NCBI GenBank assembly: GCA_035288405.1 | Contig: DATEAK010000131.1 | Coordinates: forward strand, 1-10,297 | DNA from: JACPSX01 sp035288405 [NCBI: bacterium] | Lineage (GTDB): Bacteria > JACPSX01 | Direction: 5' to 3' | Length of the DNA: 10,297 bases | Part shown: positions 114 through 8,142 of the stretch, in pieces | Numbering within the stretch: position 1 is the stretch's first letter | Layout of the letters: every line of letters starts with the position of its first letter | Translations under genes and position numbers: made by a program | Notes under the pieces: model-generated | Told to the model about the DNA's origin: nothing | Database searches by the model: none | The model's input: only the letters and a program-made list of their open reading frames with translations

Positions 114-2177
114 ATGTACAGAGCCTGCATCGACATAGGCGGGACTTTCACGGATTGTCTTGTCTTGGACGATCAAGGAGATATTCACGAATTCAAATCA
201 CCCACGACTCCCCAAGATCCCTCCCTGGGTTTCCTCGCCTGCCTGGAAAAAGCAGCGAAGAGTTATCATCAATCCCTTTCCTCCTTTCTAGCGGAAGTAG
301 ACCTCCTCATTCACGGCACCACCCTGGCTACCAATACGCTCATCAACGAGAACGGCGCCAAGACCGGAATGATCACCACCAAAAACTTCCGGGACATCAT
401 CGAGATCCGAAGGGGCTTTAAGAACATCCGCACCTCTATGTACAACGTGTTCGTCCCCCCCTACAGCCCCCTGGTCCCCCGGAACCTGCGCCTGGAAGTC
501 GAGGAGCGCATCCTAGCCTCCGGAGAAATTTTAACCACCCTGAACGAGGCTGAGGTGCAACAGGCAGTCGCCCAATTAAAGAAGGACGGAGTCCAGGCGA
601 TCGCTGTCTGCTTCCTCCATTCTTATGCGAACCCCAACAACGAGCAACGGGCCACGGCAATCTGCAAGGAGTCTTTCGACGGAGCCTACGTGACGGCCTC
701 CCACGAGATTTTGCCCGTCTGGCGGGAGTATGAGCGGTTTTCCACTGCGGTGGTGTCCGCTTATGTGGGGCCTGTGGTAGAGCGCTATCTGCGAGCCCTG
801 GAGAAGCGGCTGCGGGACTCCGGATTCAAGAGAAGTCTCCTCCTCGTGCTCTCCAGCGGGCTTGTAGAAACAGTCGAGAATTGCATACCGCGCGCCGTCT
901 TCCTCATCGGATCGGGGCCTGCGGCAGCTCCTACGGGAGCTCTCTATCTGGGAAAAGCCGTGGATCATCAGAATCTCCTCTCCATCGACATGGGAGGAAC
1001 CTCCCTGGATGTGTGTATGATCCGGAACGGGGAGATCCCCACCACGACCGAGAGCTGGGTGGGAGATGAGCGCGTCGCGATCAAGATGGTGGACATCCAC
1101 TCGGCGGGAGCTGGAGGGGGCTCCATTGCCTGGGTCGATTCCCTGGGTCTCCTGCGGGTAGGCCCCCATTCCGCTGGCGCCGAGCCCGGGCCCGCCTGCT
1201 ACGGCAAGGGAGGGGAAAACCCCACTGTCACGGATACCGATCTTCTGTTGGGCTATGTTCCGGCTGATTTCTTCCTAGGCGGCGAGATCTCCCTGGATGC
1301 ACAGCGGGCCACCGAGGCCATCCAGAAGGTTGCCACCCCGCTCGGGATGACTGTTCCCCAGGCCGCACAGGCCATCTTCACCACGGTGAACTCCTTCATG
1401 GCCGACCAGATCACGGAGGTTTCCACGAAGAGAGGCTACGATGTCCGGGACTTCGCGCTGGTGGTGGGAGGCGGAGCCGGTCCGGTCCACGCTGCCTCCA
1501 TCGCGGACCTTCTGCACATCCCTACAGTGGTCATCCCTTCTGTGGCAGCCGAGTACTCCGCCTTTGGCATGTTCGCCATGGACATTGGCCGCAACTACGC
1601 CCGCTCCTATATTTCTCGGGCGGACAGCATCGATCTGGAGAAAGTGAGCCGGCTCTACCAGGAAATGGAACAGGAAGCGCTGGAGGCGTTTCGTTCCACG
1701 GGGGGCTTCCCGGAGCAGGTGGTGTTCTCCCGCACGGCGGACATGCGCTACACGGGTCAGTTCCACGAAGTGGAGACGTCGATCGCCGGAGGGAAAATCT
1801 CCCCCGCTGATCTGGAAACCGCAATTCAGGGCTTCCACCGGAAGCACGAGGAGCTCTATACCTTCAACATGCACTGGAGAGGGGTCGAATTTCTCACGTT
1901 CCGTCTGCGGGCTACGGCTCCCAAGGCCCCCTTCCACCTAAGCCAGATTGCCAGTGGGACGGAGGACGCATCGGCCGCCCTCAAGAGGCACCGATCCTGC
2001 TGGTTCAACGGTCGTGAGGTGAATACCCCGGTGTACGACGGGGACAAGCTCCTGGCGGGCAACCGGATTCCCGGCCCCGCGATCATCGAGGAGACCACGA
2101 CGACGGTGGTCGTCCCGGGTTCTTACACATGCGCTGTGGACCGGTTGAAAAACTATGTGATCTCGCGAAAGAGTTAG
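114..2177 (+). CDS. hyuA: Hydantoinase A/oxoprolinase family subunit (HyuA-like)
   Basis: This 687-residue protein is the ATP-binding subunit of a HyuA/HyuB-type enzyme. The superfamily includes N-methylhydantoinases, 5-oxoprolinases and acetone/acetophenone carboxylases, which use ATP to activate an amide or carbonyl substrate in the cytoplasm. The N-terminal Hydant_A_N domain (about residues 3-180) opens with the phosphate-binding motif IDIGGTFTD (6-14) and contains HGTTLATNTL (67-76). The main Hydantoinase_A domain (about 200-490) has a second actin-like motif IDMGGTSLD (291-299), the glycine-rich HSAGAGGGSIAWVD (329-342), AGAEPGPACYG (354-364) and VGGGAGPVHA (451-460). A C-terminal domain follows. 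I chose ATG 114 because GGAGGA at 101-106 lies 7 bases upstream and the family motif then begins at residue 6; an in-frame ATG at 21 would add 31 non-family residues. The hyuB pair follows. Family assignment is secure; the substrate is unknown. Confidence 0.93.
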   Translation: MYRACIDIGGTFTDCLVLDDQGDIHEFKSPTTPQDPSLGFLACLEKAAKSYHQSLSSFLAEVDLLIHGTTLATNTLINENGAKTGMITTKNFRDIIEIRRGFKNIRTSMYNVFVPPYSPLVPRNLRLEVEERILASGEILTTLNEAEVQQAVAQLKKDGVQAIAVCFLHSYANPNNEQRATAICKESFDGAYVTASHEILPVWREYERFSTAVVSAYVGPVVERYLRALEKRLRDSGFKRSLLLVLSSGLVETVENCIPRAVFLIGSGPAAAPTGALYLGKAVDHQNLLSIDMGGTSLDVCMIRNGEIPTTTESWVGDERVAIKMVDIHSAGAGGGSIAWVDSLGLLRVGPHSAGAEPGPACYGKGGENPTVTDTDLLLGYVPADFFLGGEISLDAQRATEAIQKVATPLGMTVPQAAQAIFTTVNSFMADQITEVSTKRGYDVRDFALVVGGGAGPVHAASIADLLHIPTVVIPSVAAEYSAFGMFAMDIGRNYARSYISRADSIDLEKVSRLYQEMEQEALEAFRSTGGFPEQVVFSRTADMRYTGQFHEVETSIAGGKISPADLETAIQGFHRKHEELYTFNMHWRGVEFLTFRLRATAPKAPFHLSQIASGTEDASAALKRHRSCWFNGREVNTPVYDGDKLLAGNRIPGPAIIEETTTTVVVPGSYTCAVDRLKNYVISRKS

Positions 2178-2216: not shown

Positions 2217-3983
2217 ATGAACACGCGCAATATGGACGCGATCACGCTTTCTACTATATGGCACACCTTTCACAGCACCTGCCGGGAGATGCGCTACGTT
2301 CTGGACCGCACGGCTCAGAGTTATCTGATGGCCCAGCTTCACGACGTAGGTGCCGGGATTTGGGATGCCCAGGCCCGCACCCTCGCGGTTCCTGCCGGTC
2401 CGACCTCCCAGTTCCTGGGCCAGAAGTTCTCGGTGCGCTATATCCTGGACAAGTTCGGCGACAATCTCTACCCGGGCGACGTGATCCTGAACAACGATCC
2501 CCACCACGGCTACTGCAACCACCTGCCCGACTGGGGTTTTTTCCGCCCCATCTTCTACAAGGAGGAACTCCTCTTCTTCACACTCGCCCGCGGCCACCAG
2601 ATGGACACCGGCGGTTCGTACCCAGGCGCCTACTTTCCCGACGGCTACGACATTCACGCCGAAGGGATCTGCATCCCCCCCATCAAAGTCTTCGAGAAGG
2701 GGGTGGAGAGAAAGGATGTCTTTGAGCTGGTCTGGAATAACGTGCGCTGGCCGGAAGCGGTACGAGTCGATAACTACTCGCTCATTGCCGCCACCAAGAT
2801 CTGTGAAAACCGGATTCTGGCACTGCTCAATAAGTACGGTAGAGATACGGTGATGGACTGCGTTGATGAGATGATCGTTCGGATGGAGCGGGCCATACGG
2901 ACCGAGATCAAGAAGATTCCCGACGGGACTTATTACGGTGAAGCCGCTTCCGACGACGACGGCTCCGAGCATGACGTGAAGGTTTGGGTGCGGTGCGAGG
3001 TCACGGTCAAAGGGGACGAGATGATCTTCGACTTCTCCAAGAGCGACAAGCAGAGAAAGGGGTTCGTAAATAACGTGCTCTCCTCCACTTACAGCCGGGC
3101 CGTGGCCGGGAGTTTTATCTTTTTCGATCCTGCCCTGGCCGACTTCCACAATGAGGGAAGCATGAACCCGATCAAGCTCATCGCCCCTGAGGGAACCGTG
3201 GTCAACGCCCAGTATCCGGCCACGGTCGGTGGGTCTCCGGTGAGCGTGGGGACACAGATTCTGGAGTCCCTTGTGATGGCTCTCTCTCAAGCAACGCCCG
3301 GCAAGGCCATCGCGGCATGGGGACGTCACCAGGGCCATTACATCTTCGGCTCCGATCCCCGAACCGGGGAGCGCTACGTGCAGACTACTTTCGACTCGGA
3401 CGGTGGTGCCGGAGCCGTGTCAGGATACGACGGCTTTGAAGGGGCTGCCGCATTTCCCTCACTCGGATCCGTGCAGCGGGGTAATACAGAGGAGTTGGAA
3501 ATCCGGTTCCCCTGGCGCATACTGCGCAACCATCTAGCGACCGACCTGTGCGGCGCCGGCAAGTGGCGAGGGGCCTGCGGCGTACACTGGGAAGCACTGA
3601 ACGTGGGAAGCGACGGGGGGATGGCCACAGGTAGCTCGGACGGCCACCAGACCCAGCCTCCAGGAGCTGCTGGAGGAGCGCCTGGCCCACGGTGCAAAGC
3701 GTTCCTGCAGCGTGGCAACGAGCAAATTGTAGTGAAGCCCCACCGGATGTACCAGCTCCGCGCAGGGGATGTCCTGGTAAAGATCAGCGGCGGTGGTGCG
3801 GGTGTAGGCAACCCGCTGGAGCGTGACCCGCAAAGGGTTCGGGCCGACGTGGTAAAGGGAGTCGTCTCACTGAAAGCAGCCCGGGAGACCTACGGTGTGG
3901 TCCTCCATCCCGAAACCCTGGAAGTGGATCTGGCGCAGACAGCCTTGCTGAGAGGCCGGCCAAAGGAGATGACACAGAAATGA
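2217..3983 (+). CDS. hyuB: Hydantoinase B/oxoprolinase family subunit, copy 1
   Basis: This 588-residue protein is the HyuB-type partner of the upstream HyuA. The B subunit of this superfamily forms the catalytic complex with A. Family hallmarks are PGDVILNNDPHHG (86-98) with HLPDW (102-106), GHQMDTGGSYPGAYFPDG (126-143) and EGICIPP (149-155). These correspond to the NDPYxGGxHLPD and H-x-x-DxGG-x-x-PG blocks known in HyuB proteins. The C-terminal region has glycine-rich GSSDGHQTQPPGAAGG. ATG 2217 is preferred over a TTG at 2178 abutting the hyuA stop, because AGGAG at 2201-2205 precedes it and because the tandem paralogue starts at the same residue with a matching leader. The length is normal for HyuB (roughly 500-600) and shorter than acetone carboxylase alpha. 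The gap to hyuA is 39 bases, so co-transcription is likely. Biochemical activity (hydrolysis versus carboxylation) cannot be decided. Confidence 0.93.
   Translation: MNTRNMDAITLSTIWHTFHSTCREMRYVLDRTAQSYLMAQLHDVGAGIWDAQARTLAVPAGPTSQFLGQKFSVRYILDKFGDNLYPGDVILNNDPHHGYCNHLPDWGFFRPIFYKEELLFFTLARGHQMDTGGSYPGAYFPDGYDIHAEGICIPPIKVFEKGVERKDVFELVWNNVRWPEAVRVDNYSLIAATKICENRILALLNKYGRDTVMDCVDEMIVRMERAIRTEIKKIPDGTYYGEAASDDDGSEHDVKVWVRCEVTVKGDEMIFDFSKSDKQRKGFVNNVLSSTYSRAVAGSFIFFDPALADFHNEGSMNPIKLIAPEGTVVNAQYPATVGGSPVSVGTQILESLVMALSQATPGKAIAAWGRHQGHYIFGSDPRTGERYVQTTFDSDGGAGAVSGYDGFEGAAAFPSLGSVQRGNTEELEIRFPWRILRNHLATDLCGAGKWRGACGVHWEALNVGSDGGMATGSSDGHQTQPPGAAGGAPGPRCKAFLQRGNEQIVVKPHRMYQLRAGDVLVKISGGGAGVGNPLERDPQRVRADVVKGVVSLKAARETYGVVLHPETLEVDLAQTALLRGRPKEMTQK
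3962..3983 (+). promoter_or_regulatory. ATGA stop-start overlap and RBS between the hyuB copies
   Basis: AAAGGAG at 3962-3968 lies inside the last codons of hyuB copy 1, 11 bases before ATG 3980. The ATG shares ATGA with the stop 3981-3983. The leader resembles the one before copy 1 (both AAAGGAGA about a dozen bases before ATGAA), so the duplicated unit appears to have carried its own ribosome binding site. Translational coupling is inferred. Confidence 0.7.
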
Positions 3984-5734
3984 ATCCGCGCAATGTTGAT
4001 GCGATCACGCTTTCTACCATATGGCACACGTTTCAGAGCACCTGCCGGGAGATGCGCCACGTCCTGGACCGCACCGCTCAGAGCTACCTCATGGCCCAGC
4101 TTCACGACGTGGGTGCCGGGATTTGGGACGCACAGGCTCGCACCCTGGCGGTTCCCGCCGGACCGACCTCCCAGTTCCTGGGCCAGAAGTTCTCGGTGCG
4201 CTACATCCTGGACAAGTTCGGAGACAACCTCTACCCGGGCGACGTGATCCTGAACAATGACCCCCACCACGGCTACTGCAATCACCTTCCCGACTGGGGC
4301 TTTTTCCGCCCCATCTTCTACAAGGACGAGCTCCTCTTCTTCACACTCGCCCGCGGCCACCAGATGGACACCGGAGGCTCGTATCCGGGCGCTTACTTCC
4401 CCGACGGCTACGACATTCACTCCGAAGGGATCTGCATCCCCCCCATCAAAGTGTTCGAGAAGGGGGTGGAGAGGAAGGATGTCTTCGAGCTGGTCTGGAA
4501 CAATGTGCGCTGGCCCGAAGCGGTACGAGTCGATAACTACTCGCTCATTGCCGCCACCAAGATCTGTGAAAACCGGCTTCTGGCCCTTCTGGACAAATAC
4601 GGTAAGGACACGGTGCTGGACTGCGTGGAGGAGATGCTGGACCGGATGGAGAAGGCAATTCGGGCCGAGATTAGTCAGATGCCCGACGGGACTTATTACG
4701 GCGAGGCTGCCTCGGACGATGACGGCACCGAGCACGACGTGAAGGTGTGGGTAAAGTGTGAGGTCACGATCAAAGGCGACGAGATGCTCTTCGACTTCTC
4801 CAAGAGCGACAAGCAGAAGAAAGGGTTTGTGAACAACGTGCTCCCCTCTACGTACAGCCGGGCCATCGCCGGAAGTTTTCTGTTCTTCGATCCTGGGCTC
4901 GCCGATTTCCACAATGAGGGAAGCATGAGACCGGTCAAACTCATCGCCCCCGAGGGAACCGTGGTCAACGGCCAGTATCCGTGCACAGTCGGGGGTTCGC
5001 CCGTGAGCGTGGGGACACAGATTCTGGAAGCCACGACAATGGCCCTCTCCCAGGCGATGCCTCACAAGGCAGTCGCCGCGTGGGGGCGCCACCAGGGCCA
5101 TTACATCTTCGGCTCCGATCCCCGAACGGAGGAGCGCTACGTGCAGACTACTTTCGACTCGGACGGTGGTGCCGGAGCCGTGTCAGGATACGACGGCTTT
5201 GAAGGGGCTGCGGTGTTCCAAACCTTGGGCTCCGTGCAGCGAGGTGAGATGGAGGAGGTGGAAATCCGGTTCCCCTGGCGCATCCTTCGCTACGGGTTCG
5301 AGCCGGATCTGTCGGGCGCCGGCAAATGGAGAGGCGCTTGCGGCATGCACTGGGAAGCGCTGAACGAGGGAAGCGACGGGGGCATGGCCACCGGCAGCTC
5401 GGACGGCCACCAGACCCAGCCTCCGGGAGCCGCAGGAGGCGACCCGGGACCGCTGTGCAAAGCCTACTTGCAGCGAGGTGACGAGCGAATCGTGTTGAAG
5501 CCCCACCGGATGTACCAGATCCGCACGGGCGATGTAGTGGTCAAATTCAGCGGCGGCGTCGGCGGGGTGGGCAATCCACTGGAGCGAGACCCCGAGAAGG
5601 TCCGGGCCGATGTGGTAAAGGGAGTCGTCTCACTGAAGGCAGCCCGGGAGACCTACGGTGTGGTCCTCCATCCCGAAACCCTGGAAGTGGATCAGGCCCA
5701 AACCGCCTTGTTGAGAGGCCGAGCGCCTGATTGA
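3980..5734 (+). CDS. hyuB: Hydantoinase B/oxoprolinase family subunit, copy 2 (tandem paralogue)
   Basis: This 584-residue protein is a near duplicate of the preceding HyuB. It aligns gap-free except for a C-terminus four residues shorter, with about 70 substitutions by eye. All family blocks are kept: NNDPHHG, HLPDW, GHQMDTGG, EGICIPP and the QTQPPGAAGG region, so it looks functional and not decaying. Its ATG overlaps the stop of copy 1 in an ATGA junction, with AAAGGAG at 3962-3968, which suggests translational coupling and similar expression. Residues 28-199 differ at only two positions (116 E/D, 148 A/S). Changes cluster at 200-234 (12 differences) and around the region matching NHLAT/YGFEP near 440. 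This could be a heteromeric B/B' pair with one HyuA, or a second specificity; which one is not readable from sequence. Confidence 0.93.
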   Translation: MNPRNVDAITLSTIWHTFQSTCREMRHVLDRTAQSYLMAQLHDVGAGIWDAQARTLAVPAGPTSQFLGQKFSVRYILDKFGDNLYPGDVILNNDPHHGYCNHLPDWGFFRPIFYKDELLFFTLARGHQMDTGGSYPGAYFPDGYDIHSEGICIPPIKVFEKGVERKDVFELVWNNVRWPEAVRVDNYSLIAATKICENRLLALLDKYGKDTVLDCVEEMLDRMEKAIRAEISQMPDGTYYGEAASDDDGTEHDVKVWVKCEVTIKGDEMLFDFSKSDKQKKGFVNNVLPSTYSRAIAGSFLFFDPGLADFHNEGSMRPVKLIAPEGTVVNGQYPCTVGGSPVSVGTQILEATTMALSQAMPHKAVAAWGRHQGHYIFGSDPRTEERYVQTTFDSDGGAGAVSGYDGFEGAAVFQTLGSVQRGEMEEVEIRFPWRILRYGFEPDLSGAGKWRGACGMHWEALNEGSDGGMATGSSDGHQTQPPGAAGGDPGPLCKAYLQRGDERIVLKPHRMYQIRTGDVVVKFSGGVGGVGNPLERDPEKVRADVVKGVVSLKAARETYGVVLHPETLEVDQAQTALLRGRAPD

Positions 5735-5794: not shown

Positions 5795-6805
5795 ATGATG
5801 GTAAAAAGAGGGTTGATAGGGATCGCAATCTCGCTAGTCGCTTTGACCCTCGGGGCCCAGGCGACTCCAGCGGCTGTTCCTCGAAGCGCCACATTGGCTA
5901 CCCATGCAGTGGGAACCGGCTACAACGCCATGGGGACTGGCATCGCCACTGTTGTAAGCCGTCACACGCCCATCGCCGTTCGGGTGCAGCCCTTTGCAGG
6001 TCCGCCGGCCTGGCTCCCTTCCATGGACCAGGGGGAGACGGACATGGGGATTCTCACCAGTGCCGACGGGGTCAGCTCCTATAAGGGGGTCGTGATCTAC
6101 AAAAGGCCGTTTAAGAATACCCGGATCCTCGTAGTTGGCGGCACACTCAAGCTTGGCTTTTTCGTCCCCAAAGACTCCCCAATTGAGACCGTCGCTGACT
6201 TGAAAGGGAAAAAGATCCCCGCTGATTACCCTGGAATCCCAATCGGCCGCCTGAGTACCACAGCCTCCCTCGCCTCAGCCGGCCTCACTTACAACGACAT
6301 CATAAGAGTCCCCGTATCGGATATGGCAGCAGGGATTCAGGCCTATTTGGAGGGAAGGCTGGATGCGGGATGGCACTCTGTCGGTAGCCCCGCCATTGAG
6401 GAGGTCAATGCCCGCAAGGGAGGGGTAAAGTTCATCTCCGTGAACTCCACGCCGGAGGGGGCCAAGAGAATGGCGGAGATCTACCCCGGGAGTTACCCGA
6501 GTTTCCTCAAGGCGGGAACTGCAACCGCGGTGGTGAAGGATACCGCCGTCCTGACCAACGACATCTATCTGGTGGCGTCCAAGGATTTTAGCGATGCGGC
6601 GGCCTACGAGATCGTCAAGGCCCTTTGGGAGTACAACCAGGAATTGGGGGCCGCCTATCCCACTCTCAAGGAATGGCAGCGGGACCGGATGGTGAGCGAG
6701 AAAGCCTTTATCCCCTACCACCCCGGAGCGATCAAGTTCTTCAAGGAAAAGGGGGCATGGAGCAAAGAGATGGAGGCCCTGCAAGCAAGCCTCTTGAGTC
6801 AATAG
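5795..6805 (+). CDS. TAXI-family TRAP transporter solute-binding protein
   Basis: This 336-residue protein is an exported periplasmic receptor of the TAXI (TRAP-associated extracytoplasmic immunogenic) family, which hands small organic anions to a fused DctQM-type TRAP permease. A signal peptide is clear: basic VKRG, a hydrophobic core of about 16 residues (LIGIAISLVALTLGA), and a likely cleavage after AQA near residue 25. The mature part starts with a TAXI-like segment, TLATHAVGTGYNAMGTGIATVV, followed by GETDMGILTSADG; DLKGKKIP and the AYLEGRLDAGW stretch are also typical. Tandem ATGs at 5795 and 5798 are both served by AAGGAG at 5784-5789 (5 or 8 bases); an upstream ATG at 5771 would place residues before the SD. 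The gene lies 60 bases behind hyuB2, so it is likely the uptake component for the Hyu substrate. No TRAP permease gene is in the window. Family call firm, ligand unknown. Confidence 0.88.
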   Translation: MMVKRGLIGIAISLVALTLGAQATPAAVPRSATLATHAVGTGYNAMGTGIATVVSRHTPIAVRVQPFAGPPAWLPSMDQGETDMGILTSADGVSSYKGVVIYKRPFKNTRILVVGGTLKLGFFVPKDSPIETVADLKGKKIPADYPGIPIGRLSTTASLASAGLTYNDIIRVPVSDMAAGIQAYLEGRLDAGWHSVGSPAIEEVNARKGGVKFISVNSTPEGAKRMAEIYPGSYPSFLKAGTATAVVKDTAVLTNDIYLVASKDFSDAAAYEIVKALWEYNQELGAAYPTLKEWQRDRMVSEKAFIPYHPGAIKFFKEKGAWSKEMEALQASLLSQ

Positions 6806-7353: not shown

Positions 7354-8142
7354 TTAGTAGCCTGTCCCCTTTTCCTCAACTTTTCTCTCACAAATGAACG
7401 GCCATATAACTTTAGCCCCTGGCGGATGCACTTTTCCAAACTGGTCCATATAGGCGACCTTCACCTTTTGGTTTCGTTTTTTGACTGGATCAATTGGTGT
7501 CATGTCTCCTGAAAGGAGTTGGAGAAAGTCATAACGATATCTTATTTTTCGGTTGCCAAGCTGGGTTTGTTGTCTTCCATAAATATTTAAATGCAAATGA
7601 GAATAAGTTACTCCTTTCCCCGTCTTCCCAACAAATCCTATGACCTGACCTAGTTTTACTTCCTGATTTACATCAACATTAAAGCCGGATAAATGGACGT
7701 AACTGGCGCTTATGTCATCTCGTCTAGGGTAATGCCTTATGATGACATGATTACCAAGTTCACTTCCGGGCTCATCAATCTGTCTAGCAATAACTCGACC
7801 ATCGGCAATTGCTACGATTGGAGTGCCTTCCGGTAAACCCCAATCAACCCCAGCATGAAAAAGCCACTGGGCGTATTCACTCCTCAATCTCCCGGAGCGA
7901 TTGTAACGATCAGCAAAACCAGAAGCTATCACAGGGCAATTTGCATCTTCCGGCATTTCTGCGGTCAATCCAGTTTCAAAAATACCAGCAGCTATATATT
8001 CTTCCTCGGTTCCAGTAATGCTCCTTTGGCTAACGGTTGTTTGGCTTGCTGCCAGTGAGACACATGCAGATGCAACCGCAAATATTATTCCAAGTTTTGA
8101 TAAATGAGGTGAAGGCGTCTGAATACCTCTGCAAGCACGCAA
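7354..8142 (-). CDS. Secreted M23 (LytM-type) zinc metallopeptidase
   Basis: This 262-residue protein is a peptidoglycan endopeptidase-type M23 domain protein. The zinc and catalytic signature is complete: HAGVD (H96, D100) and HLHLN (H182, H184), with YVHLSG (H150) between. WGLPEGTPIVAIADGRVI (101-118), GNHVIIRHY (130-138) and GQVIGFVGKTGKGVTYSHLH are the usual beta-strand and glycine motifs. N-terminal residues 15-33 (SKLGIIFAVASACVSLAAS) look like a signal peptide, so it should act in the periplasm or cell wall. The start is uncertain: TTG 8142 has only a weak AGAG upstream. The frame stays open back to a stop at 8326-8328 but offers no ATG, GTG or TTG earlier. The gene is visibly AT-richer than its neighbours (33% GC at 7561-7620), which suggests transfer. 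M23 proteins can also be inactive regulators, but here all ligands are present. Confidence 0.87.
   Translation of the reverse strand: MRACRGIQTPSPHLSKLGIIFAVASACVSLAASQTTVSQRSITGTEEEYIAAGIFETGLTAEMPEDANCPVIASGFADRYNRSGRLRSEYAQWLFHAGVDWGLPEGTPIVAIADGRVIARQIDEPGSELGNHVIIRHYPRRDDISASYVHLSGFNVDVNQEVKLGQVIGFVGKTGKGVTYSHLHLNIYGRQQTQLGNRKIRYRYDFLQLLSGDMTPIDPVKKRNQKVKVAYMDQFGKVHPPGAKVIWPFICERKVEEKGTGY
7357..7376 (-). repeat. Possible dispersed-repeat string at the end of the M23 gene
   Basis: On the minus strand this stretch reads as a purine run followed by GGGGACAGGCTACT and encodes the tail EEKGTGY directly before the stop. The string resembles short words I associate with dispersed intergenic repeats in environmental bacterial genomes. 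Only one copy is present here, so the repeat call depends on memory and not on the window. Confidence 0.25.

What the first reader, a model, noticed from the sequence alone, without database searches (positions are those of the whole stretch)
2217..5734. Tandem, near-identical hyuB paralogues sharing one hyuA
Two complete HyuB subunits, about 88% identical by eye count and gap-free in register (offset 1763 bases), follow a single HyuA with an ATGA overlap. HyuA/HyuB systems normally pair one A with one B. Both copies keep all family blocks, and differences cluster in residues 200-234 and around 440, while 28-199 differs at only two positions. This pattern suggests either a B/B' heteromeric enzyme or a recent copy evolving a new specificity with the catalytic face fixed.
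Basis: partly seen in the sequence, partly recalled or inferred. Interest (0 to 1): 0.6.

Follow-up and report, generated by a model that had tools for sequence, protein, structure and literature searches.

The report
Two hyuB copies sharing one hyuA
A bacterium of unknown source carries a duplicated enzyme-subunit gene beside a single partner gene, and its relatives keep a much older version of the same one-plus-two layout, which suggests that one energy-supplying subunit may serve two different substrate-handling subunits.

Summary
hyuB1 (2217-3983) and hyuB2 (3980-5734) are intact, 88% identical without gaps, and overlap by ATGA after one visible hyuA (114-2177). They arose by a 1,763-bp tandem duplication that carried the ribosome-binding site. 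The copy is lineage-specific as far as seen but not recent (dS 0.52, against 1.2-1.5 to the nearest orthologues). Both copies keep the metal ligands and are under purifying selection (dN/dS 0.12). Amino-acid change concentrates in residues 200-540. The near-frozen N-terminal domain reflects constraint plus, modestly supported, gene conversion. Of 15 caprolactamase pocket positions only 412, 414 and 415 differ, all on one wall. Relatives hold more HyuB than HyuA (277 v 205 matches in 24 genomes), B-TAXI-B-TAXI arrays, and an independent, older A-B-B' operon in at least 19 genomes of the order. There the second B has fixed changes in the pocket and in the B-B contact segment. Best reading: one ATPase subunit serving two HyuB with different pockets. 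Whether mixed B-B' enzymes form is open, and dosage remains a rival. New variant of a known kind.

The parts
114..2177 (+). hyuA, ATP-binding (ASKHA) subunit, 687 aa; start taken at MYRACID, which matches relatives; motifs DIGGTFTD (7), DMGGT (292), GAEPGP (355)
   Evidence: PF01968 4.9e-80, PF05378, PF19278
2199..3961 (+). tandem duplication unit, copy 1 (1763 bp: Shine-Dalgarno + hyuB)
   Evidence: register identity begins at about 2199 and is lost after about 3959
3962..5722 (+). tandem duplication unit, copy 2
2217..3983 (+). hyuB1, 588 aa; its last residues PKEMTQK read as the duplicated ribosome-binding region translated, and its stop is the TGA of ATGA
3980..5734 (+). hyuB2, 584 aa; own Shine-Dalgarno AAAGGAGA inside the hyuB1 3' end
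3980..3983 (+). ATGA overlap of hyuB1 stop and hyuB2 start
3450..3461 (+). hyuB1 codons 412-415, pocket-wall loop (CapB P408-C411): A, F, P, S
5213..5224 (+). hyuB2 codons 412-415, same loop: V, F, Q, T
5795..6805 (+). TAXI-family TRAP solute-binding protein, probably last gene of the operon (upstream alternative start 5771)
   Evidence: (TIGR02122 155.8 bits, cut-off 84.35)

Best explanation
hyuA-hyuB1-hyuB2-TAXI is an uptake-and-activation operon of the ATP-dependent hydantoinase/lactamase/ketone-carboxylase family in which one kinase-like subunit (HyuA) serves two metal-bearing HyuB subunits. A 1,763-bp tandem duplication copied hyuB with its ribosome-binding site, so both B proteins are probably made from one message. 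Both keep the four metal ligands and a nearly identical N-terminal domain (metal site, HyuA contact, B-B contact), kept alike by constraint and some gene conversion, so either could dock on HyuA. They diverged in the linker and in the barrel that walls the pocket. The most likely result is two enzyme forms, (A-B1)2 and (A-B2)2, perhaps with mixed tetramers, acting on two related substrates (or a substrate and its follow-up product) brought in by the TAXI receptor. Shown: the anatomy, the duplication and its relative age, conserved ligands, where the differences lie, and the older parallel A-B-B' operon. Inferred: shared HyuA, co-transcription, two specificities, role of TAXI. The substrate is unknown.
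For: Ligands D43, H102, D105, H127 are identical in B1 and B2 (ligand list from PMC8453981). dN/dS 0.12 overall. In codons 200-540 nonsynonymous:synonymous changed codons are 60:89 between B1 and B2, against 34:91 in an orthologue pair of similar dS (odds ratio 1.8, Fisher p 0.030), while codons 1-199 show 6:37 against 9:55 (p 1.0). Three of 15 pocket positions differ, all on one wall: 412, 414, 415; sites 412-415 have 3 differences against 0.7 expected from family variability (P 0.021). The B-B contact segment has one difference (148). Parallel old case: B and B' of one orthologous group follow each other in 19 genomes (14 of the family, 5 others of the order; A visible in 15; under 400 bp apart in 17), in separate clades (97/94 and 100/100), with the ligands kept in both. 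Fixed first/second differences are enriched in pocket columns (6 of 13 v 45 of 556, p 2e-4, 13+13 sequences; 3 of 12 v 21 of 557, p 0.008, 20+19 sequences).
Against: No substrate, expression or complex data. For the window pair alone, pocket sites are not significantly enriched for differences (3 of 15 v 64 of 565, p 0.25), and differences in general sit at family-variable sites (p 7e-13), as relaxed drift would also give. The p of 0.030 is modest and is one of several tests. In the old operon, with the larger set, the barrel-only pocket test is not significant (2 of 8 v 14 of 187, p 0.11). The CapB alignment (about 34% identity or less) shifts by one or two residues around 336-339 and 408-411 between runs. 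B2 changes a glycine that is otherwise invariant in the 34 relatives compared (G527V), which could mean weakened function. In a second A-B-B set (L097, L099) all four HyuBs have His where the ligand Asp105 stands.
Confidence: 0.52

Rival explanations
1. B1 and B2 form an obligate or preferred mixed enzyme, A2-B1-B2, with two unlike active sites across the B-B contact, a mirror image of acetophenone carboxylase (two unlike A subunits, one B).
For: In the old A-B-B' operon every fixed first/second difference of the N-terminal domain falls in the B-B contact segment (CapB 129-174): 5 of 46 v 0 of 155, p 5e-4; in the genomes outside the family alone 21 of 46 v 29 of 155, p 3.5e-4; same-position comparisons between the two groups of genomes show no such bias (3 of 46 v 8 of 155, p 0.48; 3 of 46 v 12 of 155, p 0.71). 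ATGA overlap would favour matched translation. Apc shows that subunit duplication can give heteromers in this family (PMC5214803, passages).
Against: The window pair differs at only one contact-segment site (148), so nothing visible drives B1-B2 over B1-B1. Four of the five old-operon sites are close neighbours, so they are not independent; one first-copy row (L095, chimeric) is the likely deviating row there. Contact changes could equally keep B and B' apart.
Confidence: 0.2
2. Gene dosage: the copy simply raises the amount of HyuB, with some relaxed drift in less constrained parts; both copies do the same job.
For: Differences track family-variable sites; signs of gene conversion; near-symmetric branches, 0.092 and 0.073; HyuB matches exceed HyuA matches in 19 of 24 family genomes.
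Against: dS of 0.52 is long for a pure dosage copy; amino-acid change is raised (odds ratio 1.8) only in the pocket half; changes at otherwise fixed or nearly fixed positions (335 A/C, 527 G/V).
Confidence: 0.22
3. One copy is on its way to loss (B2 with G527V, or B1 with Q19H), and the pair is a passing state.
For: No direct B-B pair was seen among the 10 close relatives found in 25 family genomes; B2 alters an otherwise invariant glycine.
Against: Both frames intact with dN/dS 0.12, both ligand sets intact, both start sites with Shine-Dalgarno sequences.
Confidence: 0.06

Closest known systems
ATP-dependent caprolactamase CapAB (Pseudomonas jessenii; PDB 6yra; PMC8453981)
   Same: Two-subunit HyuA/HyuB plan, ATP motifs, four metal ligands; HyuA gives 648 bits and the HyuBs 337 and 346 bits to the NCBIfam models
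   Different: Below the family cut-off of 1000 bits; no vicinal Cys-Cys in the pocket (P/S or Q/T instead); two B genes after one A; gene order A-B rather than B-A
Acetophenone carboxylase Apc (PMC5214803)
   Same: Same superfamily; subunit duplication within one enzyme
   Different: Apc doubles the ATP-binding subunit (alpha, alpha') and has gamma and epsilon subunits; here the metal-bearing B is doubled, and there is no room for a gamma gene between hyuA and TAXI
Older A-B-B' operon of the same order (loci L085, L087-L096, L098, L101, L102, L109-L113)
   Same: One HyuA followed by two HyuBs that both keep the ligands and differ mainly outside the N-terminal domain (79% identity in 1-199 against 54-58% in 200-531)
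   Different: Independent, much older duplication: B and B' are 52-68% identical, and 29-31% to the window's HyuBs (L085 rows); in 2 of 19 genomes 1.0-1.2 kb with an open frame of about 300 codons lies between them
Plain hyuAB clusters on plasmids (Ensifer, Rhodococcus, Bosea, Corynebacterium, Shinella, Paracoccus)
   Same: HyuA/HyuB neighbours
   Different: 6 of 6 examined list one A and one B (the plasmid gene table is incomplete)

Membership tests
Hydantoinase B / oxoprolinase subunit (PF02538) | Full-length profile match above cut-off | tested here: met
   B1 434 bits and B2 431 bits, cut-off 26.8, profile 1-519 of 519
Hydantoinase B / oxoprolinase subunit (PF02538) | Metal ligands Asp41, His99, Asp102, His124 of CapB | tested here: met
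   D43, H102, D105, H127 in both copies; ligand residues taken from PMC8453981 section 2.7
ATP-dependent hydantoinase HyuAB | Two-gene cluster, one alpha and one beta (as stated in PMC5214803) | tested here: not met
   One visible alpha, two beta genes; upstream of base 1 unseen
Caprolactamase CapAB (NCBIfam NF050156/NF050157) | Score above equivalog cut-off | tested here: not met
   647.8, 336.8 and 345.6 bits against 1000
Caprolactamase CapAB | Vicinal disulfide Cys410-Cys411 | tested here: not met
   P414-S415 in B1, Q414-T415 in B2
Acetophenone / acetone carboxylase | Equivalog-level score and a small gamma subunit gene in the cluster | tested here: not met
   ApcC 365 bits of 1500, ApcD 117 and 106 bits of 1500; gene spacing leaves no room for a gamma gene between hyuA and TAXI; upstream unseen
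TAXI-family TRAP solute-binding protein | TIGR02122 above cut-off | tested here: met
   155.8 bits, cut-off 84.35
Older A-B-B' operon of this order | HyuBs fall in the two position clades of that operon | tested here: not met
   Window B1+B2 are sisters (100/100) and far from both clades
B-B' heteromeric enzyme | Both B proteins in one complex | not testable with these tools
   Needs protein work

The most novel reading that the evidence does not exclude
This bacterial order uses HyuA as a common ATP-spending module that drives several interchangeable HyuB modules, and in A-B-B' operons builds an asymmetric A2BB' enzyme with two different pockets facing each other across the B-B contact, so that the product of one site can be passed to the other. 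The window catches a younger, independent repeat of that step.
Probability: 0.18. Interest if true: 0.68.

Novelty: new variant of a known kind. Interest (0 to 1): 0.45.

Why it matters
A structural paper on the family (PMC5214803, passages seen) describes hydantoinase clusters as one alpha and one beta gene only. A repeated, long-maintained A-B-B' arrangement would show that specificity in this family can evolve by adding B subunits to a shared ATP-using partner. It gives a direct test case: an old pair with fixed pocket and contact-face differences, and a younger pair still 88% identical. It also flags a lineage rich in HyuAB, UbiD and TAXI genes as a source of new ring-opening or carboxylating enzymes.

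Tried and rejected
Own genome: none held, so read depth, upstream genes and copy number in the source organism could not be checked. Assembly artefact: held unlikely on divergence and junction anatomy. 'Recent copy': rejected on dS. 'Only selection freezes 28-199': rejected in part, because silent sites in 1-199 are also less diverged; the formal patchiness tests are modest (max chi-square P 0.022, longest identical silent run P 0.022; five control pairs P 0.18-0.49), the strongest breakpoint was near codon 482, not 199, and the longest identical silent run spans codons 373-410. Structure prediction of B2 from 8 sequences gave mean pLDDT 41.9 and was not used, so no fold search was run. Swapped C-terminal domain: B1 and B2 share a C-terminus (541-579) that differs from four orthologues at 21-24 of 39 sites; no donor was found in the loci held (best matches 51-62% identity), so it stays unexplained. 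The older A-B-B' operon as direct ancestor of the window pair: rejected by tree. Phylum-wide spread of the older operon: 3 of 297 sampled genomes matched at E<=1e-130, two of them family members and the third only at 42% (how many family genomes the sample held is not told, and in the rows shown at most four candidates per genome were scored). Six paper searches on tandem or duplicated HyuB and related terms listed no report of an A-B-B' cluster; the lists were capped (20 of 6,835; 20 of 22; 14 of 14; 7 of 7; 0; 15 of 59). In one search none of the 14 listed papers holds both 'UbiD' and 'hydantoinase'.
Full report
OBSERVATION. The window holds, on the + strand, hyuA (114-2177, start chosen at the conserved MYRACID), hyuB1 (2217-3983), hyuB2 (3980-5734) and a TAXI solute-binding protein (5795-6805). 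The two HyuBs match PF02538 over its whole length, align without gaps, and differ at 70 of 584 residues and 246 of 1,755 nucleotide positions (whose counts of 71 and 585 include the stop column).

ORIGIN. In the 1,763-bp register the similarity begins at about 2199, that is with the Shine-Dalgarno of hyuB1, and ends at about 3959/5722. So the copied unit is 'ribosome-binding site + hyuB'. At the junction hyuB1 runs through the copied site (PKEMTQK) and stops at the TGA of ATGA, where hyuB2 starts; hyuB2 ends differently (APD). One event explains both the overlap and the different tails (inference from sequence).

AGE AND SELECTION. On a tree of 40 HyuBs, B1 and B2 are sisters (100/100) inside a clade of 12, nearest to copies in three 'Deltaproteobacteria' MAGs, L001-L003 = genomes G001-G003 (82-83%; the fork joining the window pair to these three has support 84/94). 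None of the 10 other members of that clade is seen directly before or after another HyuB, though several lie at contig ends. A TAXI gene follows directly in 7 of the 10 (L006, L052, L053, L054, L057 and both L071 copies, the second cut by the contig end). In L055 a 661-codon frame comes first and TAXI after it; L072 shows only a 36%-identity piece; in L056 no TAXI hit was found on the contig. NG86 dS is 0.52 between B1 and B2, against 1.16-1.49 to the orthologues in L071 and L006, with dN/dS 0.12. So the copy is particular to the window's lineage as far as seen, not recent, and both copies are constrained. Codons 200-540 carry more amino-acid change than an orthologue pair of similar dS (60:89 v 34:91 changed codons, p 0.030), while codons 1-199 do not (6:37 v 9:55).

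WHY 28-199 IS SO ALIKE. Given how variable each column is in 34 relatives, 14.6 differences were expected and 2 seen. Fourfold sites between B1 and B2 are also less diverged in 1-199 (20 of 92, 0.22) than in 200-540 (63 of 150, 0.42); in the eight comparisons of B1 or B2 with four orthologues the drop is at most 0.10 (0.43-0.58 in 1-199, 0.50-0.66 in 200-540). Patchiness tests give P about 0.02, controls 0.18-0.49. I read this as constraint plus some gene conversion; the conversion part is modestly supported, and the tests do not place its border at 199.

WHERE THE DIFFERENCES LIE. Mapping on caprolactamase CapB (PDB 6yra; sequence alignment). From PMC8453981 I saw the abstract and outline, sections 2.6, 2.7 and 2.8, and the first of two parts of section 2.1; domain limits, ligands and pocket list come from 2.7. 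The N-terminal domain has 6 differences in 200 positions, linker 10 in 27, mixed-beta domain 16 in 122, barrel 29 in 167, C-terminal domain 3 in 43. Metal ligands are unchanged. In the B-B contact segment only residue 148 differs. Of 15 pocket positions, 412 (A/V), 414 (P/Q) and 415 (S/T) differ, matching CapB P408, C410, C411. That is not an enrichment of the pocket as a whole (p 0.25), though the loop 412-415 exceeds what family variability predicts (3 v 0.7, P 0.021).

THE WIDER PICTURE. The relatives are unusual. G001, G002 and G003 give 34, 27 and 20 HyuB matches, fragments included. In 24 genomes of the family there are 277 PF02538 and 205 PF01968 matches; B exceeds A in 19, equals it in 4, is fewer in 1. 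The matches of these genomes lie on many contigs, so fragments are counted; two genomes of the order whose listed matches all lie on one contig (G034, G035) have 20 B v 15 A and 17 B v 12 A. In G034 the listed coordinates put four of the five surplus B in long, stand-alone HyuBs and one in a tandem pair (my reading of the rows). Gene orders include UbiD-B-A-B-TAXI-A-B-TAXI-B (L071, with a partial TAXI next in the overlapping L003), B-TAXI-B-TAXI-TAXI (L057) and UbiD-A-A-B-TAXI-DctM-B (L053). UbiD ORFs lie near HyuA/HyuB in 11 of the 35 stretches surveyed (34 in L052-L085 plus L006, two of them overlapping); all 11 match PF01977.

AN OLDER A-B-B' OPERON. Two HyuBs of one orthologous pair follow each other in 14 family genomes and in 5 of the 10 genomes of the order outside the family (A visible beside them in 15 of the 19). 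In 17 of 19 they are under 400 bp apart; in G004 and G019 1.0-1.2 kb with an open frame of about 300 codons lies between. Two more genomes outside the family show the parts at contig ends. Counts are lower bounds, because one search does not list all matches. First and second copies form separate clades (97/94, 20 rows; 100/100, 19 rows); the tree is rooted at the midpoint, with a single-B Ensifer relative on a long branch at the root. A second, different A-B-B set occurs in G011 and G015 (L097 and L099, in L099 with 1.1 kb between the B); its four HyuBs have His in the column of ligand Asp105. B and B' of the older operon are 52-68% identical, keep the ligands (one row has a gap at the first), and are more alike in 1-199 (79%) than elsewhere (42-58%), the same pattern as in the window. 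Fixed first/second differences: 45 of 556 columns overall and 6 of 13 pocket columns with the 13+13 family sequences (p 2e-4; within columns 333-531 5 of 9 v 29 of 186, p 0.005); 21 of 557 and 3 of 12 with the 20+19 set (p 0.008; within 333-531 2 of 8 v 14 of 187, p 0.11). The second alignment moved some pocket columns by one or two residues. All five fixed differences of the N-terminal domain lie in the B-B contact segment (5 of 46 v 0 of 155, p 5e-4; controls p 0.48 and 0.71; four of the five are close neighbours; one deviating row per class was allowed, which in the first class is probably the chimeric L095). The Ensifer protein matches the first copy at 16 of 21 fixed sites, the second at 3, neither at 2, so B' looks like the changed copy if Ensifer is a fair outgroup.

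READING. Because the older operon shows that one-A/two-B layouts can be kept for a long time with the second B altered in its pocket and contact face, I favour functional sharing of HyuA by two B subunits for the window too, with two specificities more likely than a mixed enzyme. Dosage remains a serious rival. The window's genome is not held, but its methylisocitrate-lyase-like neighbour is 73-75% identical to G001-G003 genes, in line with membership of that family.

KNOWN OR NEW. PMC5214803 (abstract and passages, 12 of 15 places) states that hydantoinase clusters consist of only two genes, hydAB; 6 of 6 plasmid clusters I examined fit this (6 of the 50 hits listed). My six paper searches (capped lists) listed no A-B-B' report. 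I call it a new variant of a known kind.

Noticed in passing
L053, L058, L059, L060, L063, L064, L068, L071, L077, L078, L081: UbiD decarboxylase genes (11 of 11 match PF01977) sit near HyuA/HyuB genes in this family; no paper listed holds both 'UbiD' and 'hydantoinase'.
   Followed up: partly
L053 1770-7853: Two adjacent hyuA genes (58% and 73% to the window's) before one hyuB, an A-A-B layout that recalls acetophenone carboxylase.
   Followed up: no
L095 9-1706 (G001:C322): First hyuB of the older operon looks chimeric: residues 1-200 only 42-54% identical to either copy of G003, the rest 84-96% to its first copy (last 16 columns 62%); domain swap or misjoined contig end.
   Followed up: partly
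window 3837-3953 and 5600-5716 (B residues 541-579): Both HyuBs share a C-terminal stretch differing from four orthologues at 21-24 of 39 residues, far above the rest; no donor found.
   Followed up: partly
L057 3925-5967: Two TAXI receptor genes in tandem after a hyuB; B-TAXI-B arrays without an A between (also L055, L071).
   Followed up: no
window 7354-8142: M23 peptidase gene on the minus strand in a clearly lower-GC stretch (41-47% against about 54-65% over the hyu genes), perhaps recently acquired.
   Followed up: no
G034:C1 1220475, 2134989, 4032839, 4115879: Long (open frames of 751-768 aa) stand-alone HyuB-like genes without a listed HyuA next to them.
   Followed up: no
L097 3097-6573 and L099 4588-9104: Second, different A-B-B set in G011 and G015 whose HyuBs have His in place of metal ligand Asp105, so perhaps a different metal site.
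   Followed up: no
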